The translations under genes were made by a program, and so were the position numbers. The notes under the pieces were generated by a model. The model saw only the letters and a program-made list of their open reading frames with translations, was not told the origin of the DNA and did no database searches. 34,416 nucleotides of DNA from an uncultured Elioraea sp. GTDB taxonomy: Bacteria; Pseudomonadota; Alphaproteobacteria; Acetobacterales; Acetobacteraceae. Shown here in pieces: positions 1,604 to 21,180 of this stretch. Numbering within the stretch: the stretch's first letter is position 1; the number at the start of each line of letters is the position of its first letter. The stretch covers positions 1-34,416 of the forward strand of contig CALBEG010000238.1 of NCBI GenBank assembly GCA_937927455.1, read 5' to 3'.

Positions 1604-1647
1604 GCCTCGTTGCGCAGGCGATGCCCTCAAGGCTGGCGCGGGCCTGA
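1600..1647 (+). CDS. Possible 15-residue coupling peptide between ner-like gene and transposase
   Basis: GTG at 1600 overlaps the stop of the previous gene and the TGA at 1645-1647 overlaps the transposase ATG (TGATG). The frame is VSLVAQAMPSRLARA. Double overlap suggests ribosomes could travel through it to couple transposase translation, since the transposase start has no clear ribosome site. Equally it may be chance. Confidence 0.2.
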   Translation: MSLVAQAMPSRLARA

Positions 1648-3536
1648 TGCGCGAGCCCGAGCGCTGGTTCACGGCGGCCGAGCTTGCCGCGCTGCGCCTG
1701 CCCGGGCTGCCGCGCACGAAGCGGCGGATCAATGCGCGGGCCACGGCGGAAGGATGGCCGTGGCGGCCGGCCAGCCAGCGCGGCGGCGGGCGCCAGTATC
1801 CGCTGGACGCGCTGCCGCTGGCGGCGCGGATGGCGCTTGCCGCGCGCGCGGCAGGGGAGGAGCCCGCGCCGCTCAGGGATGCGGCGCTCGTGGAGGCCGG
1901 GCCGGCGCTGGCCGAGGGCGTGCAGCGGGCGGTGGTGCTGGATGCCGTGGAGGAACGGCGCGTCTCGGCCGGTTCGCTGACGGCGGCGGTCGCGGCGGTG
2001 GCAGCCGAGACCGGGGTCAGCATCGCCACGATCTACCGCTGGAGGCAGCTGGTGACGGGCCTGAGGCGGGCGGACTGGCCGCAGGCGCTTGCGCCGCAGT
2101 GGCGGGGCGGCGGCGATCCGGCCGCGATCGACGAGGAGATCTGGCAGGCGTTCGTCTCGGACTGGCTGCGGCCGGAGCGGCCGACGTTTGCCTCCTGCCA
2201 CGCGCGGGCCGCGGCGCTTGCGGCCGCGCGCGGCGTGGCCGTGCCGGGCCTCAAGGCGTTCCGCAGGCGGCTTGCGCGCGAGGTGCCGCGCGAGGTGGTG
2301 GTGGCGCGGCGGGAGGGGCGCGAGGCGGTGCGGCGGATGCTGCCGCCGCAGGAGCGATCGGTGGCGGCGCTGGAAGCGCTCGAGCTCGTCAACGTGGACG
2401 GGCACCGGTGGGACGTGTTCGTGCGCTGGCCTGACGGGCGGGTGGCGCGGCCAGTGATGGTTGCCATCCAGGACGTCTACAGCCGGAAGATCCTGGCGTT
2501 GCGGATCGGCGAGACCGAAAGCGCAGTGCTGACGCGGCTGGCCTTTGCCGACCTGTTCCGGGACTTTGGCATCCCGGCCGGCTGCCTGATGGACAATGGC
2601 CGCGCGTTTGCGAGCAAGTGGATCACCGGAGGTGCTCCCAGCCGGTTCCGCTTCAGGGTGCGGGCGGAAGAGCCGCTCGGGATCCTGACGCTCTTTGGCA
2701 TCAGGGTGCACTGGACGACGCCCTACCGCGGGCAGTCGAAGCCGATCGAGCGGGCTTTCCGCGACTTCTGCGATGCGGTCGCCAAGCACCCGGCGCTTGC
2801 CGGTGCGTGGACGGGCAACCGGCCGGACGCAAAGCCCGAGAACTACGGCTCGCAGGCGGTGCCGCTGGACCAGTTCGAGGCGGTGGTGCGCGCCGGGATC
2901 GCGGCGCACAACGCCCGGCGCGGGCGGCGGACGGAGACGGCGCAGGGCCGCTCGTTCGACGAGGTGTTCGCCGAGAGCTACGCGCGCGCACCGGTTGGCC
3001 GCGCCACGGCCGAACAGGTGCGCCTGGCCCTGCTGGCCGCGGACAGGGTGCGGGCCGACCGGCAGTCAGGCGCGATCCGCTTCTGCGGGAACAGCTACTG
3101 GTCCCCGGACTGCACGCGGCTGGCCGGGCAGTGGCTCACGATCCGCTTCGACCCGGACGATCTCCACGGCGGGATCCACGCCTATGACGCTGCCGGGCGG
3201 TTCCTGGCCACCGTGCCGGTCTGGGAGGCTGCCGGCTTTCTCGACGTGGAGGCGGCGCGGCGGCGGGCGAAGCTCGAGGCCGAGCACCGCAGGGCCGTGG
3301 CGCGGCAGGTGGAGCTGCAGGGCCTGCTCGAGGCCGAGGAGCTGGCGCGGCTCTACGTGCCGGAGGCGACCGATTCGCCGCAGCCGCTGCCGGTTGCGAC
3401 CGTGCTGCGGCCGGTTCGGCTCCGTGAGGCCGCCGCGGCGCGCGCGGCTGCGCCTGCACTGTCGCCCGGGGCGGACAGCTACACCGACAGGTTTGCGGCG
3501 GCCGTCACCCGGCTGCGGCTGGTGGAAGGAGACTGA
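1647..3536 (+). CDS. MuA-type DDE transposase
   Basis: 629 residues, close to the 663 of MuA. Residues about 5-70 are the Mu-type winged-helix DNA-binding domain (WFTAAELAAL, TKRRINARATAEGWPWR). About 90-150 form the second end-binding region (TGVSIATIYRW). The RNase H-fold core carries the catalytic triad D251 (NVDGHRWD), D316 (LMDNGRAF) and E368 (GQSKPIERAF), spaced 65 and 52 residues, against 67 and 56 in MuA. The C-terminal region (about 450-600) contains the beta-barrel (GNSYWSPD, LAGQWLTIRFDPDD) and an Arg/Ala-rich helix (ARRRAKLEAEHRRAVARQ) matching the MuB-contacting tail. It cuts and joins phage ends for integration and replicative transposition. Confidence 0.96.
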   Translation: MREPERWFTAAELAALRLPGLPRTKRRINARATAEGWPWRPASQRGGGRQYPLDALPLAARMALAARAAGEEPAPLRDAALVEAGPALAEGVQRAVVLDAVEERRVSAGSLTAAVAAVAAETGVSIATIYRWRQLVTGLRRADWPQALAPQWRGGGDPAAIDEEIWQAFVSDWLRPERPTFASCHARAAALAAARGVAVPGLKAFRRRLAREVPREVVVARREGREAVRRMLPPQERSVAALEALELVNVDGHRWDVFVRWPDGRVARPVMVAIQDVYSRKILALRIGETESAVLTRLAFADLFRDFGIPAGCLMDNGRAFASKWITGGAPSRFRFRVRAEEPLGILTLFGIRVHWTTPYRGQSKPIERAFRDFCDAVAKHPALAGAWTGNRPDAKPENYGSQAVPLDQFEAVVRAGIAAHNARRGRRTETAQGRSFDEVFAESYARAPVGRATAEQVRLALLAADRVRADRQSGAIRFCGNSYWSPDCTRLAGQWLTIRFDPDDLHGGIHAYDAAGRFLATVPVWEAAGFLDVEAARRRAKLEAEHRRAVARQVELQGLLEAEELARLYVPEATDSPQPLPVATVLRPVRLREAAAARAAAPALSPGADSYTDRFAAAVTRLRLVEGD

Positions 3537-3613: not shown

Positions 3614-4585
3614 ATGACACCGACGGCGGAAACACCAGAGACGATCGCGGAGCTCCGCGAGCGGCTGAAGGACTGGAAGGAGGCGAACGGCGCTTCCTGG
3701 GCGAAGCTTGCCCGGATGGTGGGCGTGCCCGAGGGCACGCTGACGCCCTGGGCAGGGGGCCAGTATGCCGGCGACAATGCCAGGGTGGCGCTGGAGGTGC
3801 GGAAGTTTCTCGACGCCGACAGCCGGCGCGCCGAGCTGACGGCGCGGCTGATCCGCGACCCCGGCTTCATCGAGACGCCGTCTGCGCTGCGGTTCCTGCA
3901 CCTGTTCGGCTGGGCGCACACGGGCGAGATCGTGGCGATCTCGGCGCCGCCGGGCACGGGGAAGACGCTGGCAGCACGGGCCTACCAGGCGCGGGCTTCC
4001 AACGTGTGGCTGGCGACCGCGCGGCCGTCCGCCTCTGGGCTGCAGCCGTTCCAGCTTGCCGTGTGCCAGGCGATGGGGTTCGACGAGAGCCGCTCGAACC
4101 CGCAGGCGCTGACGGCCCGCATCGTCGGGCGGATGCGCTCGGCGCGCGGCCTTCTCATCATCGACGAAGCGCAGGAGCTTTCGGACCGGGCGCTCGACGA
4201 AGTGCGGAGCTGGCACGACGAGACGGGGTGCGGGATCGCGTTCGTGGGCTACGAGCGGGTGGTCGGCCGGCTCGGCGGCGTGCGCGCGAAGCTGCTGGCC
4301 CGCCTGCACTCGCGGATCTCCATGCGGCATGTGCAGTACCGGCCGACTGATGAGGACGCGGCGATGATCGCGCGCGCCTGGGGCCTGGCGGATGGTGCCC
4401 TGATCGCCCGGATGCAGAAGCTCGCGGCGAAGCCGGGGGGGCTCAGGGGCGTGGCGAAGGTCATCAAGCTCGCCGGCATCGTGGCGACTGACGCCGGGCG
4501 GCCGATCACGGTTTCTGACCTGGACGATGCCTGGCGGCAGCTTGGCTATGATCTGATGCCTGCGGCCGAGGGAGGTGCGCGGTGA
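3614..4585 (+). CDS. MuB-type AAA+ ATPase, transposition target protein
   Basis: 323 residues; start preceded by AAAGGCAGG. Residues about 15-70 are an HTH-type N-terminal domain (SWAKLARMVGVPEGTLTPW), as in MuB. Walker A is APPGTGKT with K117; Walker B is LLIIDEAQEL with D184/E185. MuB forms ATP-dependent filaments on target DNA, recruits the transposase complex and gives target immunity. Placement 77 bases after the transposase gene is the standard A-B arrangement. The next gene starts within its stop codon (GTGA). Confidence 0.93.
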   Translation: MTPTAETPETIAELRERLKDWKEANGASWAKLARMVGVPEGTLTPWAGGQYAGDNARVALEVRKFLDADSRRAELTARLIRDPGFIETPSALRFLHLFGWAHTGEIVAISAPPGTGKTLAARAYQARASNVWLATARPSASGLQPFQLAVCQAMGFDESRSNPQALTARIVGRMRSARGLLIIDEAQELSDRALDEVRSWHDETGCGIAFVGYERVVGRLGGVRAKLLARLHSRISMRHVQYRPTDEDAAMIARAWGLADGALIARMQKLAAKPGGLRGVAKVIKLAGIVATDAGRPITVSDLDDAWRQLGYDLMPAAEGGAR

Positions 4586-5417: not shown

Positions 5418-6014
5418 ATGGCCACCAGACGCAAGGCAGACGCCGACCCAGCCGCCCGAAGCCTCGAGGAGGCCCGCGCCCTTCTTGCCGACTTCGGCGC
5501 GCTCGATGCCGAGCTCGTGGCGCTGGAGGAGGCCCATGCGGCACAGCTCGCGCGGCTGAAGGCGGCGCACGAGGAGGCGGCAGGGGCGCTTAAGGCGCGG
5601 CTCAGGACCATCTTCCTGCGCCTGAAGCCCTGGTGGGCGGTGGCGGGTGCGGAGGTTGCTTCCGGCCGGAAGTCGGCCGAGATCGCCGGGTGCCGGATCG
5701 GCGAGCGCACCACGCCGCCGAGGCTCCACGTGCCGCATGGCGAGACCGATCTCATCCAGAGCCTGGAGCTGCTGGGGTTCGCGTGGGCGCTCAGGGTGAA
5801 GAAGGAGCTCGACAAGCCTGCGCTCATCAAGGCGCTGGCCCGTTCCGGGGAGGATGGCCCGGACGGCGAGGATGCGCGGGTTCTTGCCGGGCTCGGGCTC
5901 GAGGTGCGGCAGCGCGAGGAGTTCTTCATCGAGCGGATCGTGCCTGCGGCGCAGGTCGAGACTGTCGCTGGCGAGCCGGCGCCAATCGCCGGGCTGAACG
6001 GAGGTGCAGCATGA
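5418..6014 (+). CDS. gam: Gam-like host nuclease inhibitor
   Basis: 198 residues after an AAAGGAG ribosome site. It matches Mu Gam: an N-terminal long coiled-coil helix (about 15-60, LEEARALLADFGALDAELVALEEAHAAQ...), then a mixed beta region with SGRKSAEIAGCRIGERTTPPRL and VKKELDKPALIKAL, typical of Phage_Mu_Gam. Mu Gam is a Ku-like dimer that covers linear DNA ends and blocks host exonucleases, protecting incoming phage DNA. Confidence 0.92.
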   Translation: MATRRKADADPAARSLEEARALLADFGALDAELVALEEAHAAQLARLKAAHEEAAGALKARLRTIFLRLKPWWAVAGAEVASGRKSAEIAGCRIGERTTPPRLHVPHGETDLIQSLELLGFAWALRVKKELDKPALIKALARSGEDGPDGEDARVLAGLGLEVRQREEFFIERIVPAAQVETVAGEPAPIAGLNGGAA

Positions 6015-6916: not shown

Positions 6917-7581
6917 GCGGCCGGCCGGCACCCGCCAGCGCGCCGCGGTTCGCGCCGGACCCGGCGCGGCGGGCGCTGCTTGCCAAGGTGCATCTCGCGG
7001 CCAAGGAGATGGGCCTCTCACGTGAGGATTATGAGGCCGTGATCGCCCGGATGACGGGCAAGTCATCCGCCGGCCTGTGCTCCATCGCGGAGCTGGAGCG
7101 CGTGGTCGAAGAGATGCAGCGGCTGGGCTGGAGGCCTGCGGCGCCGCGGCCGGCCCGGTGTGGCGCGCGCCCTGCCGACCACCCGGCGGCGCGCAAGGCG
7201 CGGGCGCTGTGGATCTCGCTGTGGCAGCTGGGGGCTGTCAGCAACCGCTCGGAGGCCGCGCTCGAGGCCTTCGCGCGGCGCCAGCTCGGCTGCACGCGGC
7301 TGCAGTGGGCCGACCAGGCGCAGGTCTTCCGGGTGACCGAGGCGCTGAAGGCGATTGGGCGGCGGCACGGCTGGGACCCGGACTGGATCTCGACGGGTGA
7401 CCAGGTGAAGGACCTGATCCGCGCGATCGACGCGAAGCTGCGCGTGCTCGAGCCGGACGCCCCCTCCGTCGAGCAGCGGTTCGGCACCTGCTGGCACCGC
7501 GAGCCGATGGCCGCTCTGTACCGGATGGCCGATGCGATGGGCGCGGCGCTGCGCGCTGCACAGGCGCGGAGGGCAGGCTGA
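6901..7581 (+). CDS. gemA: GemA/gp16-like regulatory protein
   Basis: 226 residues from GTG 6901, overlapping the previous gene by 16 bases. Residues about 24-80 (ARRALLAKVHLAAKEMGLSREDYEAVIARMTGKSSAGLCSIAELERVVEEMQRLGW) match the start of the Mu gp16/GemA family, followed by the family's second part (KARALWISLWQLGAVSNRSEAALEAFARRQ). In Mu, GemA alters host gene expression and supercoiling. Position directly before the Mor-like gene is conserved with Mu. Confidence 0.88.
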   Translation: MEARLSGRPAPASAPRFAPDPARRALLAKVHLAAKEMGLSREDYEAVIARMTGKSSAGLCSIAELERVVEEMQRLGWRPAAPRPARCGARPADHPAARKARALWISLWQLGAVSNRSEAALEAFARRQLGCTRLQWADQAQVFRVTEALKAIGRRHGWDPDWISTGDQVKDLIRAIDAKLRVLEPDAPSVEQRFGTCWHREPMAALYRMADAMGAALRAAQARRAG

Positions 7582-7940
7582 TGGCGGTGATCGCAGCCAG
7601 CCTCGAGGAGCTGGCGCTGGTGATCGGGGCACAGGCGGCGCGCGCGTTCATGACGGCGTTCGCGGGCCGGCGGATCTACGTGCCGCAGGCAATCGGGCCG
7701 GACCACCCGATCGCAGCCGCGATCGGCGCCGACAAGGCCGCGGTGCTGGCGGATTACTACGGCGGCACCCACCTCGAGCCGCCACTGGCGGCGGCCAAGC
7801 GGTGGCGCGTGCTTGAAATGGCCGCGGCCGGCGTGCCAGACAGCGAGATTGCGAAGGCGCTGTGGACCACCGAACGCCATGTGCGTCGGATCCGCGCGGC
7901 AGCGCAGGCTGCGGCAGCCCAGCTGCGTCTCCCGGTGTGA
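7581..7940 (+). CDS. mor: Mor-type middle/late transcription activator
   Basis: 119 residues, start overlapping the GemA stop by one base. The N-terminal half has the Mor dimerisation pattern with GRRIYVPQAIG and LADYYGGTHLEPPL; the C-terminal half is an HTH (RVLEMAAAGVPDSEIAKALWTTERHVRRIRA). Mor and C of Mu activate later promoters by binding as dimers. It closes the early operon and is followed by a strong hairpin, so its target promoter is probably in or near 7941-8021. Confidence 0.88.
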   Translation: MAVIAASLEELALVIGAQAARAFMTAFAGRRIYVPQAIGPDHPIAAAIGADKAAVLADYYGGTHLEPPLAAAKRWRVLEMAAAGVPDSEIAKALWTTERHVRRIRAAAQAAAAQLRLPV

Positions 7941-7948
7941 GTGCGCGC

Positions 7949-7974
7949 CCCTGCCGGACGATGGTCCGGCAGGG
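7949..7974. terminator. Perfect 11-bp hairpin at the early/late boundary
   Basis: CCCTGCCGGAC (7949-7959) and GTCCGGCAGGG (7964-7974) pair fully around a GATG loop, nine bases after the Mor-like gene. No T-run follows (CTTGTCCC), so it may end early transcription weakly, protect an mRNA end, or be a protein site. Confidence 0.5.
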
Positions 7975-12717: not shown

Positions 12718-13037
12718 CCCTCGATCCTCTCGTGATGCAGCTCGTCTCGATGGCCTGCGCCGTCGTCGCGTGCGGCTGTGCCGTCTACGTGGCCTGGCGG
12801 GCCGGCCAGTGGCGACGGGCCGACCAGGCGATCGCCGATGCCAGGGCGGTGACGGCGCGGGTGGCGGACCACGAGCAGCGGCTGGTGCTGGTGGAAGCCA
12901 AGCTGGCCGACCTGCCGACCGCGCGTGACATCGAGCAGCTGCGCTCCGACCTGCGGGCGCTCGGCCGGGAGATCAGCAAGGCGGAGCGCGGGATCGAGCG
13001 GATCGAGGGATTTCTCATGGGCGGGCGCGCGACATGA
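12714..13037 (+). CDS. DUF2730 membrane-anchored coiled-coil protein
   Basis: 107 residues, ATGA overlap with the previous gene. A transmembrane helix at about 7-28 (VMQLVSMACAVVACGCAVYVAW) is followed by a long coiled coil (RVADHEQRLVLVEAKLADLPTARDIEQLRSDLRALGREI). This is the layout of DUF2730 proteins (Mu gp25 position), found just before the terminase genes in Mu-like phages. Possible spanin-like or membrane role; function unproven. Confidence 0.85.
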   Translation: MTLDPLVMQLVSMACAVVACGCAVYVAWRAGQWRRADQAIADARAVTARVADHEQRLVLVEAKLADLPTARDIEQLRSDLRALGREISKAERGIERIEGFLMGGRAT

Positions 13038-13321
13038 GCTACCGCCAGCACGTGGCCGAGCATCTGCGCCGCCTGATCCTGGCAGTGATGGCCGAGGCGC
13101 CCGCGTATCGCTCCAACGCCGCCCTCCTCAAGGAGGCGGCCGTCCACCTGGGCATTCCGGCGGGCCGCGAGCTGGTGCGTGCCGAGCTCGCCTGGCTGGC
13201 GGACATGGGCCTTGTGACGCTCACCGGCGAGGAGGTGGCGGAGCTGACCGCGCGCGGGCTCGATGTGGCGCAGGGCCTGTCGCACCTGCCGGGGATCGCC
13301 CGCCCCGATCCCAGGGGCTGA
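13034..13321 (+). CDS. Mu gp26-like winged-helix protein (VpaChn25_0724 family)
   Basis: Ninety-five residues, ATGA overlap. Sequence pattern HLRRLILAVMAEAPAYRSNAALLKEAAVHLGI, LVRAELAWLADMGLVTL and VAELTARGLDVAQG is a winged helix typical of the gp26 family preceding the small terminase in Mu-like phages. Role unknown. Confidence 0.82.
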   Translation: MSYRQHVAEHLRRLILAVMAEAPAYRSNAALLKEAAVHLGIPAGRELVRAELAWLADMGLVTLTGEEVAELTARGLDVAQGLSHLPGIARPDPRG

Positions 13322-13324
13322 GCG

Positions 13325-13933
13325 ATGGGCAGGCGCCGCCGCGCCGTCAAATCCTCGGTGGAGCGGCTGCCGCCCGAGCTCCGCGAGGAGATTGCGCGCC
13401 TCAGGCTCGGCCAGGGCCGCACGCTCGACGAGATCCTCGCGCACCTGAAGGCGCTGGGCGAGAGCGGGGTCTCGCGCTCGGCGCTCGGCCGGCACGTGAA
13501 GCAGCTGGAAGACGAGGTGCGCGAGCGCACCGCGATCGAGATGGCGAAGATGGCTCCGGCCATGCAGTTCGCGAACGCCATGTCCTCGGCGATGGTGGAG
13601 GCGTTCGGCGAGCTCGCCGCACCGGACAAGCTCGATGCGACCAGCCAGATCCTCCAGTCGATCCTGTTCCGGATGGCCTTGGCCGGCATGCGCGACGACC
13701 CCGAAGGCGCAGCACTTCAGCCCAAGGACATCTTCGTGATGGCGCGCGGCCTCCAGACACTCGAGCAGGCGAAGCGGACCGCCGAGGAGCGGGCAGCGAA
13801 GGCCGCCGAACGGGCGGCGCGCGCGGCGCGCGAGGAGGCCGCGGCAAGCGCTGCGACGAGTGCCAGGGCGGCGGGGCTGTCGGCGGCGACGGTGGAGCAG
13901 ATCCGCCTGGCCGTGCTGGGGGAGGGCTCGTGA
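13325..13933 (+). CDS. Small terminase-type protein, DUF3486 (Mu gp27-like)
   Basis: 202 residues. The N-terminus MGRRRRAVKSSVERLPPELREEIARL with an HTH (TLDEILAHLKALGESGVSRSALGRHVKQL) is the DUF3486 signature; the C-terminal half is coiled coil (AKRTAEERAAKAAERAARAAREEA). In Mu this protein is needed for packaging and is regarded as the small terminase that recognises the phage end. The next gene starts within its stop. Confidence 0.9.
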   Translation: MGRRRRAVKSSVERLPPELREEIARLRLGQGRTLDEILAHLKALGESGVSRSALGRHVKQLEDEVRERTAIEMAKMAPAMQFANAMSSAMVEAFGELAAPDKLDATSQILQSILFRMALAGMRDDPEGAALQPKDIFVMARGLQTLEQAKRTAEERAAKAAERAARAAREEAAASAATSARAAGLSAATVEQIRLAVLGEGS

Positions 13934-15426
13934 CCGAGCGACAGGCAGAGCGGGCGGAGGAACGGGCGGGCACCGAGGCGCTGCTCAAGCGGCTGCCGAA
14001 GGGCGACCTGCTGCTGCCCTACCAGGCGGCGATCACCTCGCGGCTGTTTGCCGGTGTGCCGCTCCTCGTCATCGAAAAGAGCCGGCGCATCGGCCTCACC
14101 TGGGGGCTTGCCGCCTATGCCGTGCTGCGGGCGGCGGCGCAGCCCTCGGCGGGCGGCACGACAGCATGGTACATGGGCTACGATCTCGAGATGGCGCGCG
14201 AGTTCATCGAGGTCAGCGCCATGTGGGCGCGCGCGTTCGGGATCGCGGCTGAGGATGCCGGCGAGGAGCTGCTCCACGACGGCGATCAGGCGGTGGGCGC
14301 CTTCCGCATCCGCTTTGCGAGCGGGTTCAAGATCGTGGCGCTGCCTTCCGTCCCGCGGGCGCTCCGCGGCAAGCAGGGCCTCGTCATCGTGGACGAGGCG
14401 GCCTTCCACAAGGATCTGCCCGAGGTGCTCAAGGCCGCGCTGGCGCTCCTCATGTGGGGCGGGCAGGTGGTGGTGGTCTCGACGCACGATGGTGTCGACA
14501 ACCCCTTCAACCTGCTCCTGGACGAGATCCGTTCCGGCCGTCGGAAGGGCGAGACCGCCACCATCACCTTTGCCGACGCGCTCGCCGGCGGCCTCTACGA
14601 ACGGGTGGCGCAGGTGGCGGCGGCGCGGGGGCGGCCGCTCGAGCTCGACCGGGCGGAGTGGGTGGCCGACATCCGCGCGACCTACGGCGAGGACGCAGAG
14701 GAGGAGCTGGACTGCGTGCCGCGCGCTGGCTCCGGCAGCCTGATCCGGCCGGATGACCTGGTAGCGTGCGAGCATGCCGAGGCGGGCCGGCCCGATCTTT
14801 ACCGCGGCGGCCTCTGCTACGGCGGGTGGGACGTGGCACGCCGGCGGGACGGGCAGATCCAGTGGCTGTTCGAGCTGATTGGCGACGTGCTCTGGCTGCG
14901 CGACCGCATCGAGACGGTCGGCGCCACCTTCCAGGAGCAGTCGGACCGGCTCGCCTGGCTGTTCCGCCACCGCCGGGTGCTGAAGTTCGGGATCGACCAG
15001 ACGGGGATGGGCGAAAAGGTGGTGGAGGACGAGCGCCGGGTGCACGGCGCGCGCGTCGAGGGGTTCCTGCTGACTGGCCCGACGCGCCTCGACCTCGGGC
15101 TGTCGCTCGCGGCGCGGTTCGAGCGCGGCCTCATCCGCATTCCCGCTGACCCGGTGATCCGCACCGACCTCCGGGCGATCAAGCGCGCGAGCGCCGCCGG
15201 GGGCGGCGTGCGGCTCGTCAACGAAGAGAGCGTGCACGCTGACCGCTTCTGGGCCGCGGCGATGGCAAGCCGCCTCGCCGACGATCCGCCGGCGGTCTAC
15301 GCCTACCGCGGGGTGGGCCGGGCGCGCCACGCCCCGCCGGGCGCTGCCGCCTTCCTGCGCCCAGACCACGCGGACGACCGCCCGGTGCGCGCTCGTGCAG
15401 CGCGCCGTGCCGTCAGCCCCTGGTGA
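13930..15426 (+). CDS. Terminase large subunit (Mu gp28-like)
   Basis: 498 residues from a GTG overlapping the small terminase stop. The ATPase part has a Walker A-like VIEKSRRIGLTW (residues 47-58) and Walker B VIVDEAAF (D155/E156). The nuclease part has RNase H-fold acidic residues D301 (GGWDVARRRDG), D356 (KFGIDQTGMG) and D438 (SVHADRFWAAAMA). It drives headful packaging, cutting host DNA beyond the right end of the integrated phage. Confidence 0.95.
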   Translation: MTERQAERAEERAGTEALLKRLPKGDLLLPYQAAITSRLFAGVPLLVIEKSRRIGLTWGLAAYAVLRAAAQPSAGGTTAWYMGYDLEMAREFIEVSAMWARAFGIAAEDAGEELLHDGDQAVGAFRIRFASGFKIVALPSVPRALRGKQGLVIVDEAAFHKDLPEVLKAALALLMWGGQVVVVSTHDGVDNPFNLLLDEIRSGRRKGETATITFADALAGGLYERVAQVAAARGRPLELDRAEWVADIRATYGEDAEEELDCVPRAGSGSLIRPDDLVACEHAEAGRPDLYRGGLCYGGWDVARRRDGQIQWLFELIGDVLWLRDRIETVGATFQEQSDRLAWLFRHRRVLKFGIDQTGMGEKVVEDERRVHGARVEGFLLTGPTRLDLGLSLAARFERGLIRIPADPVIRTDLRAIKRASAAGGGVRLVNEESVHADRFWAAAMASRLADDPPAVYAYRGVGRARHAPPGAAAFLRPDHADDRPVRARAARRAVSPW

Positions 15427-15437
15427 GGAGATGAGAC

Positions 15438-17174
15438 ATGGCTGAGGGTGCGCAAAGGCGCGGATGGGGCCAGCGGATCCTCGCCGCTGCGCGCCAGCTG
15501 GCCGGGCTTCCACCTGCCGACGAAGCGCTGCTCGGGCAGCCCATCTCGCGCGCTTCGGTCAGGGCGAACCGCTCGATCCTGACCGGCTACCCGGCTGACG
15601 GTCTGACGCCCGAGCGGCTGGCGGCGCTGCTGCGCGGCGCCGACGCAGGCGACGCGCTCGCCTACCTCGAGCTCGCCGAGCAGATGGAGGAGCGCGACCT
15701 CCACTATCTCTCGGTGCTGGGCACGAGAAAGCGGCAGGTGGCCCAGCTGCCGGTGACGGTGGAGGCAGCCTCCGACTCGGTCGAGCACATCGCCCACGCC
15801 GACCTGGTGCGCGAGTGGCTGTCCCGCGACAGCCTCGAGGCCGAGATGTTCGACATCCTCGACGCCATCGGCAAGGGCTATTCCGTGACCGAGATCGTCT
15901 GGGAGACGAGCGCGCGGCGCTGGCTCCCGGCCCGCCTCGAGTGGCGCGACCCGCGCTGGTTCGAGTGGGACCGCGAGGACGGGCAGACGCTCTATCTCGT
16001 GGGCGGCCCAGGCGACGCCGGCGGCAGCGCCGTGCGCACGAAGCTGCCGCCGTTCAAGTTCATCGTGCATCACCATCCGGCGAAGTCGGGCCTGCCGATC
16101 CGGTCCGGGCTGGCGCGGCCGGTGGCCTGGGCGTGGCTGATGAAGGCCTATGGTCTCAAGGACTGGGCCGCCTTTGCCGAGGTGTACGGCTTCCCCTTCC
16201 GGGTGGGCAGGTATGACGCCGGCGCCAGCGAGGACGACATCGACCGGCTGCTCGAGGCGGTGACCTCGATCGGCGTCGACGCAGCCTGTGTCATCCCTTC
16301 CTCGATGCAGATCGACTTCGTGGACGGCAAGGCCGCCGGCAGCGCCGACCTCTACGAGCGGCTGTGCCAGTATCTCGACCGGCAGATCTCGAAGGCGGTG
16401 CTGGGCCAGACCGCGACGACCGACGCCGACACCGGCGGCCTCGGCTCCGGCGCCGAGCATGGCGAGGTGCGGCGCGACATCGAACGCGCCGATGCCAAGC
16501 TGCTCGCTGCCACGCTCCAGCGCGACCTCGTGGTGCCGATGATCGCGCTCAACTTCGGGCCGCAGCGGGCCTACCCGCGCCTCAGGATTGGCCGGGCCGA
16601 GGAGGAGGACACGGCCGCACTGGTGGAGGCGCTGGCGAAGCTGGTGCCGCTTGGCCTCGAGGTGGGCGCGTCGACGGTGCGCGACCGGCTGGGCCTGCCC
16701 GATCCGGAGCCCGGCGAGCGCCTGCTCGGGACGGCCGAAAATCGCCCCGTAGAGCGCGATTCCGGTGTGCCCGGTGTCATGACACCCGGAAGCCGCGCAC
16801 CCCACCTCTTAGGGGGTTCTTATGCGCGTTATTTGCCATCCCATGCGTGGGAGGACCTTACGAGCGCCATTGCCGCGTCCAACGCCTTCCCGGAGGCTCC
16901 TGCCGACGTGCTGGGGGAGCTGTCCGACGCGGTCGTGGCAGCCTCTTGGAAGCAGGCCATGGCACCGCTTGCACAGGCCATTCTGACTGCGCTTGGCGAG
17001 GCCCGCACCGCCGACGAGGCACGCGAGGCCCTCCTCACGGTGGTCTCCCGGCTGGACATCGAGCCGCTGCGGGAGGCACTGGCCCGTGCCGCCTTCGCGG
17101 CGCGGATTGCCGGCGAGGCGCTTGTGCTTCCTGGCCTCGCCGTTGACCAGGACGACGATGGCCGGACCGATTGA
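15438..17174 (+). CDS. Portal protein, DUF935 (Mu gp29-like)
   Basis: 578 residues after a GAGGAG ribosome site. Recognisable DUF935 blocks include LELAEQMEERDLHYLSVLGTRK, EMFDILDAIGKGYSVTEIVWE, KFIVHHHPAKSGLPIRSGLARP and WAWLMKAYGLKDWAAFAEVYGFPFRVGRY. It forms the dodecameric ring at the head vertex through which DNA passes. The C-terminal 100 residues (SYARYLPSHAWEDLTSAI onward) continue as in other family members. Its end overlaps the MuF start by 17 bases. Confidence 0.95.
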   Translation: MAEGAQRRGWGQRILAAARQLAGLPPADEALLGQPISRASVRANRSILTGYPADGLTPERLAALLRGADAGDALAYLELAEQMEERDLHYLSVLGTRKRQVAQLPVTVEAASDSVEHIAHADLVREWLSRDSLEAEMFDILDAIGKGYSVTEIVWETSARRWLPARLEWRDPRWFEWDREDGQTLYLVGGPGDAGGSAVRTKLPPFKFIVHHHPAKSGLPIRSGLARPVAWAWLMKAYGLKDWAAFAEVYGFPFRVGRYDAGASEDDIDRLLEAVTSIGVDAACVIPSSMQIDFVDGKAAGSADLYERLCQYLDRQISKAVLGQTATTDADTGGLGSGAEHGEVRRDIERADAKLLAATLQRDLVVPMIALNFGPQRAYPRLRIGRAEEEDTAALVEALAKLVPLGLEVGASTVRDRLGLPDPEPGERLLGTAENRPVERDSGVPGVMTPGSRAPHLLGGSYARYLPSHAWEDLTSAIAASNAFPEAPADVLGELSDAVVAASWKQAMAPLAQAILTALGEARTADEAREALLTVVSRLDIEPLREALARAAFAARIAGEALVLPGLAVDQDDDGRTD

Positions 17175-18501
17175 GCCTGCGCGATCGGCGCCGGAGATCT
17201 TGCAGGCGTTCAGTCTGCCGCCCGATCAGGCCATCCGCTTCTTTCAGTCGAAGGGCTATCGCACCTCCGTGCGCTGGGCCGAGATCTGGCAGGAAGAGCA
17301 TGCGCGCGCGTTCACGGTGGCGAAACTCGCCCGGCTGGATCTGCTGGAGGCGGTGCGCGCCTCCCTCGATGAGGCAATCCGCGAAGGCACGACCTACGAG
17401 GACTGGCTGGCGGATATCGTGCCCAGGCTCAAGCGCGCCGGCTGGTGGGACGAGGTGCGCGACAAGACGCTGACTGGAACCGAGGGGCCAGTCAGCGTGG
17501 GGCCTCGCAGACTGCGCACGATTTTCCGCACGAACATGCGCACCGCGGCTGCGGCGGGGCAGTGGGAGCGGATCCAGCGCGGCAAGGAGACCATGCCATA
17601 CCTCGAGTATGATGCCATCCTGGACACGCGGACGCGCCCGGCGCACCGGGCGATGCACGGGATCGTGCTGCCGGTCGATCACCCCTTCTGGCGCATCTAC
17701 CTGCCTCCCAACGGGTGGAACTGCCGGTGCGGCGTGACCCAGCGCTCGGCCGAATCGCTGAAGCGGCGGGGCCTCGCCGTCACTCCCGACGACCGGCTGC
17801 CGCAGCTGCCGCCGCGGCTATTCTGGCGGCCCGGCGCGTCTTCGCCCGAGGTGGTGCCAGGCGGCGTCGACCCGGGGTGGGGCTATAACGTGGGCGAGGC
17901 CTACTGGCGTGCGCTCACGACGCCGCCGGCTGACGGTCCACCGCCGGTCCCGCTGCTGGCGGCCCGGAGGCCGGACGGGCCGCGACAACCGCTACCGGCA
18001 CCACGCGCAGTCGCGGAGGACCTGCTTCTCGACGACGCTGACGACGCGCAGGCCATCGATGCGTTTGTCGCGGCCCTCGAGAGCGCAGGGCGGCGCGTCG
18101 GCGACGTGCTGATTGTCCATGATCCGCTGGGCGAGCCGGTGGTCGTCTCGGATGACTTTTTCCGCCGGCGGGGGCCGGGAGAGCCGCTGAAACTGGACTC
18201 CACGCGCCGCCGCCACGTGCGCCTGATGGCCGAGACGATCCTGAGGCCAGACGAGATCTGGTGGGCGTGGGAACAGGTGGCCTCGACGCCTGGCGGCCCG
18301 GCGGATCGGTGGCGGCTGACTCGGCGCTATGTCGCCCGCTTCCGCGTCTCCGGCCGCGAGGTGCCGGTGCTCGTGGTGATGGAAGTCTCACGCCACGGCT
18401 GGCGAGGCGTGACGGCGTTTCCGCCGACGTCCATGAGCTACCTCGACAGGATGCAGGCGCGCGGCGGCGTGCTGGCCTGGCGCCGGCCCGCTGACGGCTG
18501 A
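17158..18501 (+). CDS. MuF head protein fused to a C-terminal PBECR2-type nuclease/toxin domain
   Basis: 447 residues, ATG 17158 overlapping the portal gene. The N-terminal half is MuF (Mu gpF/gp30): RLRTIFRTNMRTAAAAGQW, YDAILDTRTRPAHRAMHG and the cysteine motif PPNGWNCRCGV. After a Pro-rich linker (about 260-285) comes a separate domain of about 150 residues (VLIVHDPLGEPVVVSDDFF, RHVRLMAETILRPDEIWWAWE, YVARFRVSG, AFPPTSMSYLDRMQARGGVLAWRR) that resembles the phage Barnase-EndoU-ColicinE5/D-RelE (PBECR2) fold often attached to MuF. It may be injected with the DNA. No immunity gene is evident next to it. Confidence 0.88.
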   Translation: MAGPIEPARSAPEILQAFSLPPDQAIRFFQSKGYRTSVRWAEIWQEEHARAFTVAKLARLDLLEAVRASLDEAIREGTTYEDWLADIVPRLKRAGWWDEVRDKTLTGTEGPVSVGPRRLRTIFRTNMRTAAAAGQWERIQRGKETMPYLEYDAILDTRTRPAHRAMHGIVLPVDHPFWRIYLPPNGWNCRCGVTQRSAESLKRRGLAVTPDDRLPQLPPRLFWRPGASSPEVVPGGVDPGWGYNVGEAYWRALTTPPADGPPPVPLLAARRPDGPRQPLPAPRAVAEDLLLDDADDAQAIDAFVAALESAGRRVGDVLIVHDPLGEPVVVSDDFFRRRGPGEPLKLDSTRRRHVRLMAETILRPDEIWWAWEQVASTPGGPADRWRLTRRYVARFRVSGREVPVLVVMEVSRHGWRGVTAFPPTSMSYLDRMQARGGVLAWRRPADG

Positions 18502-18517
18502 GAGGGCGACACACAGA

Positions 18518-18545
18518 AAGGGGCGCCGGATGCCCGGCGCCCCTT
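18518..18545. terminator. Strong GC hairpin after MuF (unit 1)
   Basis: GGGGCGCCGG (18520-18529) pairs fully with CCGGCGCCCC (18534-18543) around ATGC. On the plus strand only TT follows; on the minus strand the stem is followed by TTTCTGTGTG. It can end transcription of the packaging operon and of anything on the minus strand. Confidence 0.65.
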
Positions 18546-18560
18546 CGGCGTTGCTCCTCT

Positions 18561-18623
18561 TCAGATCCACCACCGCCAGGAATCAGCAGAGCGGGAGCCA
18601 CCCAGACGGTGATCCCCCATCAT
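18561..18623 (-). CDS. Candidate 20-residue minus-strand micro-ORF ending SWRWWI
   Basis: The frame MMGDHRLGGSRSADSWRWWI ends 18 bases before the unit 1 hairpin, read on the minus strand. TTGACA occurs on the minus strand (18639-18644) shortly upstream, though without a good -10. AGG precedes the second ATG closely. A Trp/Arg tail and terminator right after the stop are reasons to consider it; coding is unproven. Confidence 0.22.
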   Translation of the reverse strand: MMGDHRLGGSRSADSWRWWI

Positions 18624-18676
18624 CCTGATCGTCGTCCCTGTCAAGATAGGGGCGCGACGCGATTGGCCAAAAACAG

Positions 18677-18703
18677 AAGGGCACCGGTCAACCGGTGCCC
18701 TTT
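18677..18703. terminator. Bidirectional intrinsic terminator (unit 2)
   Basis: GGGCACCGG (18679-18687) pairs fully with CCGGTGCCC (18692-18700). On the plus strand TTTACGTTT follows, and on the minus strand TTCTGTTTTT, a good T-run. It therefore looks at least as strong for minus-strand transcripts as for plus-strand ones. Confidence 0.7.
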
Positions 18704-18779
18704 ACGTTTCTGCCGCCCTTGGTTCCGCCACCGCCAGGCTATAGACGGCTCGGGGCGCCCCCCGTGCGGTGAACACCAC
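18702..18779 (-). CDS. Candidate 25-residue minus-strand micro-ORF next to terminator
   Basis: Two adjacent GTG codons (18777-18779 and 18774-18776) follow AAGG at a reasonable distance; the frame reads VVFTARGAPRAVYSLAVAEP plus RAAET and its TAA lies one base before the unit 2 hairpin. The hairpin has a T-run in this direction. This arrangement looks like a very small gene with its own terminator, but no homologue is known to me. Confidence 0.3.
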   Translation of the reverse strand: MVFTARGAPRAVYSLAVAEPRAAET

Positions 18780-18856
18780 GTGCCTTAAGCCCTACGCCCG
18801 TGTCAACGGGCAACCGCCGGACCTGTGTCCGGCAAGGGCCGTGACCCCTCTCGCGT

Positions 18857-19864
18857 ATGGCAGCGGCTATGCCCCACGCTGTGATCCTAGCCTGTGCGGC
18901 CGCCCCGCTGCAACCAGTGCTGGCTGGCGGCGAGCCAGTCACCAGGGTGCAGCTGCTGCCCATGGGCACCATCGCCCTCAGAGACGGGCGCGGGCCTTTT
19001 CACCTGCGCGACCTGGACCACGCGAGGCGCGTCATCGAGGAGACGCGCCGCCGGGCGGGGCGGACCGACATTCCGGTTGATTACGACCACCAGTCGGTGT
19101 TCGGGGCGGTCAAGGGCGTGGGCGGCCAGGCCCCTGCTGCCGGCTGGATCAGGCCCGACAGCCTTGAGGCCGACGCGCGCGGCATCTGGGCGGAGGTGGA
19201 ATGGACGGCGGCCGCGCGCGAGGCGCTTGCCGACCGGCGCTGGCGCTATCTCTCGCCCCTGTTCCGCTACGACGAGAAGACCGGCGAGGTCGTCTCGATC
19301 GAGAATGCAGGCCTCACCAATTCCCCGGCGATCGAGGAGCTGATGGCGGTCGCCGCCAACGAGGAGAGACGCATGGACACGAGCGCGATCGCGCTCGCGC
19401 TCGGCCTGGCCGAGGACGCGGGCGTGGACGAGATCCTGGCAGCCATCGCTGCCATGAAGGAGCAGATGGCAGGCGCGCAGGAAGCCGCCGTCTCGGCCGC
19501 GGTGGCCGCCGCGACCGCCGAGCGCGACGGCCAGCTTGCCGCGGCCCGCGCCGAAGTGGCCGATCTCGCCAGCCGGCTCGCCACGTTCCAGGAGGAGGCG
19601 GCCAGCCGACTCGTCGACGACGCCATCGCTGCCGGAAAGCTGACGCCGGCGCAGCGCGCCTTCTGGCTCGCCCAGGCGAAGAGCAAGCCGGAGGAGACCG
19701 CCGCCTATCTTGCCACGGCGCCGGTCATCCTTGCCCCCGGCCGGTCGGACCTCGTGCCGGCCTCCGCCACGCCGGGCAGCGCGCCCCTCACCGATGACGA
19801 GCTGGCCGTGGCCCGCGCCTTCGGCCTCAACCCTGCCGCCTTCGCCGCTGCCAAGGGAGCCTGA
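18857..19864 (+). CDS. Mu I-like head maturation protease with fused scaffold region
   Basis: 335 residues. Residues about 25-165 match Mu gpI: VQLLPMGTIALRDGRGPF, IPVDYDHQSVFG, APAAGWIRPDSLEADARGIWAEVEWT, RRWRYLSPLFRYDEKTGEVVSIENAGLTNSPAI. The rest is a coiled-coil scaffold part (MKEQMAGAQEAAVSAAVAAA...LASRLATFQEEA) and a capsid-binding tail. The protease cuts scaffold during head assembly. The first ATG (18857) has no clear ribosome site; the second at 18869 is possible. Confidence 0.92.
   Translation: MAAAMPHAVILACAAAPLQPVLAGGEPVTRVQLLPMGTIALRDGRGPFHLRDLDHARRVIEETRRRAGRTDIPVDYDHQSVFGAVKGVGGQAPAAGWIRPDSLEADARGIWAEVEWTAAAREALADRRWRYLSPLFRYDEKTGEVVSIENAGLTNSPAIEELMAVAANEERRMDTSAIALALGLAEDAGVDEILAAIAAMKEQMAGAQEAAVSAAVAAATAERDGQLAAARAEVADLASRLATFQEEAASRLVDDAIAAGKLTPAQRAFWLAQAKSKPEETAAYLATAPVILAPGRSDLVPASATPGSAPLTDDELAVARAFGLNPAAFAAAKGA
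19373..19864 (+). CDS. Internal in-frame scaffold protein (Mu Z-like)
   Basis: An ATG inside the protease gene, in the same frame, is preceded by GAGGAG (19361-19366) at ideal distance, a better ribosome site than the full-length gene has. The 163-residue product would contain only the coiled-coil scaffold part. Mu makes scaffold Z in the same way from within I. Confidence 0.7.
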   Translation: MDTSAIALALGLAEDAGVDEILAAIAAMKEQMAGAQEAAVSAAVAAATAERDGQLAAARAEVADLASRLATFQEEAASRLVDDAIAAGKLTPAQRAFWLAQAKSKPEETAAYLATAPVILAPGRSDLVPASATPGSAPLTDDELAVARAFGLNPAAFAAAKGA

Positions 19865-20283: not shown

Positions 20284-21180
20284 ATGATCGTCAATTCCGC
20301 GAACCTTCAGACGCTCTTCACGGGCTTCAAGGCGAGCTTCCAGGAGGGCCTGGAGGCGGCCGCCGACGAGAGCTATCTGCGCTTTACCGAGGTGATCCCC
20401 TCGCAGACCTCGACCGAGGAATATGGCTGGCTCGGCGAGCTCCCCTCGGTGCGCGAGTGGGTGGGCGACCGGCACATCCACCGGATGAAGCAGAACGCCT
20501 ACCGGCTGACGAACCGCGACTACGAGCACACCGTGGCGGTCGACCGGAATTTGATCGAGGACGACCGCTACGGCGTCTACGGGCCGCGGTTCCGCATCAT
20601 GGGCCGCACGGTCGCCAAGAAGGCGCCGGCCGACTGCTACGAGGCGCTGAAGCAGGGGTTCTCGACCCCCTGCTACGACGGGCAGTTCTTCTTCGACACC
20701 GACCACCCGGTCCTCGACGCCAACGGCAACCCGCTCCTGGTATCGAACGTGCAGGCGGGCTCGGGCGAGCCCTGGTTCCTCCTGGCGACGAACGGCCCGG
20801 TGCTGCCCGTCATCCTGCAGACGCGCAAGGCCTTCGACTTCACACGCCTGGATGCGCCCGTCGACGAACCCGTCTTCATGCGCCGCGAATATCTCTACGG
20901 CAGCCACGGCCGGCACGTCGTGGGCTACGGCTTCTGGCAGACGGCCTTCGGGTCCCGCGCGCCGCTCACGCCCACCAATTACCAGGCGGCCCGCCAGGCG
21001 ATCGCGAGCATGAAGGGCGACTATGGCCGGCCGCTCGGGCTCACTGCCAACCTGCTCGTGTGCGGGCCGGCGAACGAGGGCGCGGCGCGGAAGATCCTGC
21101 TCTCCGAGCTGGGTGCCGGGGGCGAGACGAACGAGTGGCGCGGCACCGCCGAGCTGCTCGTCTCCTCGTGGCTGGCATGA
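20284..21180 (+). CDS. Major capsid protein (Mu gpT-like)
   Basis: 298 residues after an AGGAGG ribosome site. The opening MIVNSANLQTLFTGFKASFQ, then RLTNRDYEHTVAVDRNLIEDDRYGVYGPRF and FFDTDHP are typical of Mu gpT major head subunits. Forms the icosahedral shell. The next gene overlaps by four bases. Confidence 0.96.
   Translation: MIVNSANLQTLFTGFKASFQEGLEAAADESYLRFTEVIPSQTSTEEYGWLGELPSVREWVGDRHIHRMKQNAYRLTNRDYEHTVAVDRNLIEDDRYGVYGPRFRIMGRTVAKKAPADCYEALKQGFSTPCYDGQFFFDTDHPVLDANGNPLLVSNVQAGSGEPWFLLATNGPVLPVILQTRKAFDFTRLDAPVDEPVFMRREYLYGSHGRHVVGYGFWQTAFGSRAPLTPTNYQAARQAIASMKGDYGRPLGLTANLLVCGPANEGAARKILLSELGAGGETNEWRGTAELLVSSWLA

What the first reader, a model, noticed from the sequence alone, without database searches (positions are those of the whole stretch)
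18518..18738. Duplicated hairpin units with a fixed 11-mer, a possible small RNA pair
Two units share the order, read on the minus strand, CCTGGCGGTGG, 26-27 bases, then a GC hairpin with GGGC(G/A)CCGG core and a T-rich tail. Stem bases differ compensatorily (GCG...CGC against GCA...TGC), which suggests RNA-level selection. Unit 2 has a good minus-strand T-run, so transcripts opposite to the late genes are plausible. I know of no described family like this.
Basis: partly seen in the sequence, partly recalled or inferred. Interest (0 to 1): 0.58.

Follow-up and report, generated by a model that had tools for sequence, protein, structure and literature searches.

The report
Twin small-RNA genes behind phage toxin
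A Mu-like prophage carries two side-by-side copies of a previously unlisted small-RNA gene, pointing towards the end of a head-protein gene that carries a predicted RNA-cutting domain; single copies sit behind the same kind of gene in seven other phages, so the RNA may control or counter that domain, although no RNA has yet been seen.

Summary
Each unit is a minus-strand gene of about 105 nt: a -35-like TTG 34-36 nt before a conserved ACC box, hairpin A, hairpin B whose loop holds the fixed 11-mer CCUGGCGGUGG, and an intrinsic terminator. Single copies lie right behind the same kind of gene in seven other phage loci. A covariance model built without the window finds both window copies (E 1.3e-18 and 2e-10). 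Stems covary (94% of cells paired, 79% in shuffles) while the 11-mer stays about 97% identical in six of nine copies. G-U pairs and tetraloops favour the minus strand; U-tails do so more weakly. No Rfam family reaches its threshold. In all eight phages the upstream gene is a Mu F protein fused to a PBECR2 predicted RNase domain, and the RNA sits where such MuF toxins usually keep an immunity gene. My first reading, ordinary terminators of the plus-strand operon, was overturned. Transcription and function are not shown. Best guess: an sRNA that regulates or neutralises the MuF-PBECR2 locus; as an RNA immunity factor proper, about 0.2. Only 8 of 62 PBECR2-MuF loci carry the RNA.

The parts
18508..18614 (-). 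small-RNA gene copy 1 (u1), read right to left; model hit 18514-18614, U-rich tail to about 18508, i.e. within about 10 nt of the F stop codon
   Evidence: R2 75.5 bits; window-free model R3 43.3 bits, E 2e-10
18667..18774 (-). small-RNA gene copy 2 (u2); model hit 18672-18774, tail CTGTTTTTGG
   Evidence: R2 103.7 bits; R3 69.8 bits, E 1.3e-18; terminator scan
18617..18644 (-). putative promoter of copy 1: TTGACA (18639-18644), 16 nt, weak TGATGG (18617-18622)
   Evidence: TTG 34 nt before the ACC box; position read; the best-scoring promoter in the 80-nt region was a different site
18777..18806 (-). putative promoter of copy 2: TTGACA (18801-18806), 18 nt, poor -10 CACGTG (18777-18782)
   Evidence: TTG 36 nt before the ACC box; position read; promoter score reached by 34 of 500 shuffles
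18570..18580 (-). fixed 11-mer CCTGGCGGTGG of copy 1 (in the loop of hairpin B; stem arms about 18553-18560 and 18585-18592, by eye)
18728..18738 (-). fixed 11-mer CCTGGCGGTGG of copy 2 (in the loop of hairpin B; stem arms 18712-18718 and 18743-18749)
18518..18545 (-). terminator hairpin C of copy 1, starting 17 nt beyond the stop codon of the F gene
18677..18702 (-). terminator hairpin C of copy 2
16993..18501 (+). neighbouring gene, convergent to copy 1: Mu F protein with C-terminal PBECR2 predicted RNase domain (an ATG at 17158 is an alternative start)
   Evidence: Phage_Mu_F 1.8e-23 and PBECR2 2.6e-23; ATG

Best explanation
The finding is a tandem pair of small-RNA genes on the minus strand. 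RNA polymerase would start at a sigma70-like promoter, make an RNA of about 105 nt with three hairpins, and stop at an intrinsic terminator; copy 1 ends next to the 3' end of the convergent MuF-PBECR2 gene. Supported by sequence: conservation in eight phages, helix covariation, strand, a fixed -35 position, a fixed loop sequence. Inferred: that it is transcribed, probably in the lysogen from a host-type promoter. Inferred and less sure: that it serves the MuF-PBECR2 locus, as an RNA that binds the RNase domain, as an antisense or transcription-interference RNA lowering read-through at MuF, or as a trans-acting sRNA pairing through its 11-nt loop. I think a role tied to the MuF toxin locus most likely (about 0.45), a trans-acting sRNA with unlinked targets next (about 0.3). 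The confidence below is for the sRNA-gene identity; I lowered it slightly (from 0.8) after a fair recount weakened the U-tail evidence.
For: Unit right behind the MuF-PBECR2 stop codon in L002, L233, L243, L246, L250, L271, L272, all seven genes with PF04233 and PF18810. L002 was fetched by gene I similarity, L233 and L243 by F similarity, L271 and L272 by an F alignment, not by RNA. Models: R2 gives independent L271 62.6 bits E 1.3e-12 and L272 29.8 bits E 8.5e-5 among 81 sources; window-free R3 gives the window copies E 1.3e-18 and 2e-10. Covariation: 94.2% of cells paired against 79.4 (sd 1.8) in shuffles, 14 of 25 pairs with changes on both sides, slid controls at most 50%; 93.6% with 10 rows, one of them an antisense artefact. 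Strand: 15 G-U against 2 C-A cells, binomial 0.0012; GNRA/UUCG loops on the minus strand in 6 of 9 copies, 0 of 9 on the plus; more T in the 9 nt beyond the stem on the minus strand in 7 of 9, tie in L002, fewer in L243. Promoter: a TTG 34-36 nt before the ACC box in 9 of 9 copies; best promoter score higher than on the opposite strand in 9 of 9. The 11-mer is 97% identical in six copies where stem-B arms are 67% and 55%.
Against: No transcript data. As whole promoters the sites are ordinary: in 80-nt upstream regions the best score was reached by 10-100 of 500 shuffles, for u1 the best site lay elsewhere, and the -10 of u2 is poor. U-tails do not separate the strands in L002 and L243. L271 has only the core TGGCGGTG of the 11-mer and L272 lacks it; with L002 included the 11-mer identity falls to 87%. 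Some members are close relatives, so controls that ignore relatedness overstate. 54 of 62 distinct PBECR2-MuF loci lack the RNA. No phage target of the loop stood out.
Confidence: 0.78

Rival explanations
1. Two ordinary intrinsic terminators, perhaps bidirectional, that close the left late operon (terminase-portal-F) before the promoter of gene I; the 11-mer is left over from a tandem duplication.
For: Hairpin 1 starts 17 nt after the F stop; stem, loop and upstream A-tract fit Zymomonas terminators (PMC7566282 passages). Hairpin-1-like matches in other family genomes lie behind genes with T-tails on the gene's strand, e.g. L104, L106. A Mor/C-type dyad before gene I suggests a new transcript start. 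In the window both strands have T-containing tails.
Against: Does not explain the fixed 11-mer and its covarying stem, hairpin A, the fixed -35, or the minus-strand bias of wobble pairs and tetraloops. The hairpins may still also stop plus-strand transcripts.
Confidence: 0.14
2. A trans-acting base-pairing sRNA whose exposed loop pairs with host or phage mRNAs outside the MuF locus.
For: Loop fixed in sequence, stems fixed only in structure; three-hairpin layout ending in an intrinsic terminator.
Against: Of 28 start positions tested in the window (two each for F and gene I) none stood out for both copies; complement to F mRNA is at codon-shuffle level in the 7 phages tested, L272 not tested (best 17 of 200, L246). 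Host mRNAs were not scored. The link to MuF-PBECR2 in 8 of 8 phages would be incidental.
Confidence: 0.3
3. A tiny minus-strand protein gene whose end overlaps the terminator.
For: Short readings across the 11-mer look alike in places (by eye); a 25-aa GTG ORF (18702-18779, minus) spans copy 2.
Against: Indels beside the 11-mer break the frame between members (by eye); base changes follow pairing partners; no Pfam match for that ORF. No formal coding test was run.
Confidence: 0.04

Closest known systems
MuF polymorphic toxins of temperate phages (PMC5576092; passages seen)
   Same: Mu F domain plus a C-terminal nuclease-type domain, encoded just behind the portal; [quoted passage not shown]
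   Different: Here the downstream slot holds a minus-strand RNA gene, in tandem in the window; small unassigned ORFs exist in the same gap but match no family; toxicity untested.
PBECR predicted RNase domains (PMC5512222; passages seen)
   Same: PBECR2 fused to MuF; that paper suggests an RNA-binding role for Mu's inactive version and RNase activity for active orthologues.
   Different: The passages seen mention no dedicated partner-RNA gene.
Type III toxin-antitoxin RNA antitoxins, ToxI type (recalled)
   Same: A structured RNA beside an RNase toxin; repeated units.
   Different: Opposite strand with its own promoter, two separate ~105-nt units, no known binding to the domain.
Type I antitoxin RNA SR6 of prophage SP-beta (PMC5848175; search listing and start of abstract only)
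   Same: About 100-nt RNA overlapping the 3' end of a toxin gene on a prophage.
   Different: There the toxin is a 58-aa peptide; here it is a head protein with a predicted RNase domain and at most the RNA tail reaches the gene.
Rfam BjrC68 (RF02353), P2 (RF01672), RsmY (RF00195), sRNA-Xcc1 (RF02221)
   Same: Sub-threshold matches; the BjrC68 and RsmY ones cover the terminator end.
   Different: All below gathering scores: BjrC68 21.6 of 39 in L250, P2 28.4 of 80 in the window, RsmY 25.2 of 57 in L243. The 51.6-bit sRNA-Xcc1 match (threshold 53) lies about 1.1 kb away in L002.

Membership tests
Bacterial intrinsically terminated sRNA gene | conserved secondary structure with covariation | tested here: met
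Bacterial intrinsically terminated sRNA gene | own promoter at a conserved place | tested here: inconclusive
   TTG at 34-36 nt in 9 of 9, but whole-promoter scores not exceptional and -10 boxes vary
Bacterial intrinsically terminated sRNA gene | intrinsic terminator on the RNA strand | tested here: met
   stem of 10-13 pairs in 8 of 9 copies, 6 pairs in L272; 3-7 T in the next 9 nt; more T than on the other strand in 7 of 9, tie in L002, fewer in L243
Bacterial intrinsically terminated sRNA gene | detected transcript | not testable with these tools
   no expression data
Known Rfam family | match at or above gathering score | tested here: not met
   0 in the whole window; in five relatives and in the gap only matches below gathering scores, E-value threshold 1 and 10; L271 and L272 not scanned
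Type III RNA antitoxin | tandem short RNA repeats upstream of and co-oriented with the toxin gene (recalled) | tested here: not met
   downstream, opposite strand, single unit in seven of eight phages
Type III RNA antitoxin | RNA binds and inhibits the RNase | not testable with these tools
   needs biochemistry
MuF polymorphic toxin locus | MuF domain with C-terminal toxin-type domain, downstream of the portal gene | tested here: met
   Portal_Mu at 15438-17174
MuF polymorphic toxin locus | small immunity ORF immediately downstream | tested here: inconclusive
   plus-strand ORFs of 32, 59 and 25 aa and a 103-aa ORF overlapping gene I exist in the gap; none matches Pfam or PHROGs; conservation not tested

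The most novel reading that the evidence does not exclude
The RNA is an immunity factor: made in the lysogen from its own promoter, it binds the PBECR2 RNase domain of the virion-borne MuF protein through the fixed CCUGGCGGUGG hairpin and silences it, so that lysogens and phage-making cells are spared while an infected competitor is not. It would be an RNA in the place of the usual immunity protein of a polymorphic toxin.
Probability: 0.2. Interest if true: 0.88.

Novelty: new variant of a known kind. Interest (0 to 1): 0.6.

Why it matters
It adds a structured small-RNA family, not matched in Rfam 15, tied in all eight phages found so far to one kind of head protein. If it acts on that protein's RNase domain it would show RNA-based immunity to a phage-borne polymorphic toxin and give a handle on what MuF-PBECR2 proteins do. 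If it only regulates gene expression, it is still a compact regulator at a fixed place in Mu-like phages, with a conserved loop that can be mutated directly.

Tried and rejected
First reading, later overturned: ordinary tandem terminators between gene F and gene I. Support came from terminator statistics, hairpin-1-like terminators in other genomes and hairpins enriched in the F-to-I gap (16 of 74 loci including the window; 0.62 against 0.12 per kb). At least 6 of the 15 relatives' gap hairpins are instead a promoter dyad about 45 nt before gene I (L004, L009, L018, L023, L038, L043).

Also tried: exact hairpin patterns in 100 family genomes gave hairpin 1 in 2 and hairpin 2 in 1, own genome included. 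The 11-mer is not clearly enriched in the host (10 hits, 6 in the reversed control). A half-pattern (11-mer plus left arm) hit 25 of 395 genomes and 19 viral stretches; of the 32 matches examined in the 31 loci fetched, only the two window units have the second arm; further genome rows were seen only as matched letters. An earlier stricter pattern found nothing in viral contigs. The pattern also hit L247, which has no F gene match and no such unit. R2 in 289 class genomes: 14 with matches, own plus 13 at 30-37 bits; of 13 loci looked at, 12 look like terminator hairpins and L253 is unclear; none has the loop motif at the hit. A 5'-domain pattern gave 7 viral stretches: four known members and three others that score 18-21 bits. 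DNA similarity in phage and plasmid collections: no record covers more than 19% of the 205-base L250 region. An activator-site role for the 11-mer and a gyrase-site role for the gap were considered: 15 of 73 loci (window and its twin L010 included) have their top 10-11 bp AT-phasing peak in the gap (2.8 expected), the window does not. Target scans gave nothing. One search stopped with an error because Thiobacimonas phage P1 has no such dyad before gene I; Pelagibaca phage P1 was therefore not tested. The tail count cut the plus-strand flanks short and favoured my reading; one search replaces it.

Dropped before counts: identical or duplicate loci (L010; L248, L249, L269, L270, L273, L374 as second fetches); of 90 loci whose F match covers PBECR2, 63 were distinct downstream and one of these had under 120 nt.

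Full report
Setting. The window is most of a Mu-like prophage. It has MuA-like transposase (1647-3536), MuB (3614-4585), Gam-like protein (5418-6014), a phrog_836 late transcriptional activator (7581-7940), a terminase RNase-H domain (12925-15426), Mu portal (15438-17174), F with a PBECR2 domain (16993-18501), gene I protease (18857-19864) and gpT (20284-21180). A Thermaurantiacus tibetensis contig (Sphingomonadales) matches 12,894 bases of it at 100%.

Checking the observation. Two perfect hairpins and two exact 11-mers lie in the 355-base gap between F and gene I. The repeated 11-mer at a matching offset was reached in 1 of 5000 shuffles, but looser forms of the test gave 10 of 2000 and 28 of 1000. 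By itself the window left room for ordinary terminators, and I held that view at first.

The turn. L002, L233 and L243 are viral contigs fetched through gene I or F protein similarity. Reading the DNA behind the F stop codon in 21 F loci (two had none beyond the stop) showed that these three carry a hairpin followed by the 11-mer or a variant of it, with a different hairpin sequence in L233 and L243. A pattern built on the flank gave five stretches: L233 and L243 again, L246 and L250 with the same F-type gene just before, and L247, a chance hit. The members share one layout on the minus strand.

Anatomy. Read 5' to 3' on the minus strand: TTG box; -10-like box; an ACC box; hairpin A (5 bp); hairpin B with a 7-bp outer stem, a 3-bp inner stem and the loop UGGCGGUGGN; a linker; terminator hairpin C; a tail (alignment A4). 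In L233, L243, L246 and L250 the tail runs into the TAG stop codon of the F gene. In the window copy 1 occupies about 18508-18614, ending a few bases short of the F stop, and copy 2 about 18667-18774.

Structure and strand. On seven copies 94.2% of paired cells hold standard pairs (shuffled mean 79.4, sd 1.8); 14 of 25 pairs change on both sides in at least one copy; sliding the partner drops pairing to 41-50%. With L271, L272 and one antisense artefact row added, 93.6% (that alignment is fitted to the model). The shuffles ignore relatedness, as the tool warns. G-U pairs on the minus strand would be A-C mismatches on the plus strand: 15 G-U against 2 C-A cells (binomial 0.0012, cells not independent). 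Terminator loops are GNRA or UUCG in 6 of 9 copies on the minus strand and in none on the plus. Counted by one rule for both strands, T in the 9 nt beyond the stem is higher on the minus strand in 7 of 9 copies, equal in L002 and lower in L243, where the rule counts five T of the tail as stem. An earlier count looked stronger only because plus-strand flanks were cut short.

Promoter. A TTG begins 34, 35 or 36 nt upstream of the ACC box in 9 of 9 copies; treating copies as independent the chance product is 1.7e-14, which overstates because several are related. Scored as whole promoters the sites are not exceptional: 10-100 of 500 shuffles reach the best score in each 80-nt region, and for u1 the best-scoring site lies elsewhere; the opposite strand scores lower in 9 of 9.

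Independent recovery. R2, built from seven copies, found L271 (62.6 bits, E 1.3e-12) and L272 (29.8 bits, E 8.5e-5) among 81 loci, both right behind F on the minus strand. R3, built without the window, ranks the window copies first (E 1.3e-18 and 2e-10) and L272 third (E 9.6e-8) among 29 sources; next best was E 0.02. Earlier, R1 from the window copies alone had found L002 (E 3.8e-6) among 100 sources.

Distribution. Nine copies are known in eight phages; only the window has two (its identical twin L010 not counted). All eight upstream genes have Phage_Mu_F and PBECR2. Among 62 distinct loci whose F match covers PBECR2 and that have at least 120 nt downstream, 8 carry the RNA: L002, the window, L233, L243, L250, L271, L272 and L273, the last a second fetch of L246. 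Searches with R2 over 98, 81 and 28 sources and over 289 class genomes gave no further convincing member. The link with PBECR2 is strict one way only, and most loci searched were fetched through phage genes, so a copy elsewhere in metagenomes would have been missed.

Conservation pattern. Among six copies without L002, L271 and L272 the 11-mer is 97% identical pairwise, the stem-B arms 67% and 55%, the linker 46%, loop C 30%; with L002 the 11-mer falls to 87%. L271 keeps the core TGGCGGTG and L272 lacks it. Stems kept by pairing and a loop kept by sequence is what an RNA that touches a fixed partner shows.

Function. Not shown. MuF toxins usually carry a small ORF, probably an immunity gene, immediately downstream (PMC5576092, passages). 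PBECR domains are predicted RNases, and an RNA-binding role was suggested for Mu's inactive version (PMC5512222, passages). In the window that slot holds the RNA units before gene I; short plus-strand ORFs of 25-59 aa and one of 103 aa overlapping gene I also exist there but match no Pfam or PHROGs family, so a protein immunity gene is not excluded. An RNA acting on MuF-PBECR2 is attractive, but linkage is all there is. Neither phage start regions nor F mRNA gave a convincing target.

Novelty. Rfam 15 has no match at gathering threshold in the window and only weak, sub-threshold matches at the units at relaxed thresholds. I found no paper describing it in the listings, which cover open-licence papers only.

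Noticed in passing
18816-18833 and 7953-7970: The dyad GCCGGAC-N4-GTCCGGC occurs exactly twice: behind the late-activator gene (7581-7940) and 44.5 nt before the ATG at 18869. In relatives, dyads with arms of at least 6 bp peak 42-47 nt before the gene I ATG (33 hits over 97 loci, 0-9 in every other 6-nt bin), which suggests conserved Mor/C-type late promoters and gene I starting at 18869, not 18857.
   Followed up: partly
F-to-I gap of relatives, e.g. L022, L023, L027, L058, L113, L114: AT-rich boxes repeated at about 11 bp (TTAAGAG, GTTTAA, CCTCTTA): top 10-11 bp phasing peak of the locus in the gap in 15 of 73 loci, 2.8 expected. Candidate gyrase site or activator array at the genome centre; PMC8705779 (passages) says it is unclear whether such sites are conserved in transposable phages. 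The window lacks it.
   Followed up: partly
L002:3530-3611 (+): Match to sRNA-Xcc1 (RF02221), 51.6 bits against a gathering score of 53, about 1.1 kb from the unit: possibly a second sRNA in the same phage.
   Followed up: no
L234-L236, L238-L240, L242, L341, downstream of F: Other PBECR2-MuF loci have a different structured gap behind F: a hairpin right after the stop, then in L238-L240 GTGGTTTTGATTGGGTCTG, a variable hairpin and a TTCTATCGCCAC end, in the others a related layout (by eye). Perhaps another RNA in the same slot.
   Followed up: no
L274, L275, L276, L314, downstream of F: F stop codon followed at once by AAA or AAAA and a hairpin, i.e. a minus-strand U-tail ending at the stop codon, without the 11-mer unit (by eye).
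   Followed up: no
18801-18833: The -35 of RNA copy 2 (18801-18806, minus) lies 9 nt from the left edge of the gene I dyad (18816, plus): the phage's late activator might act on both divergent promoters.
   Followed up: no
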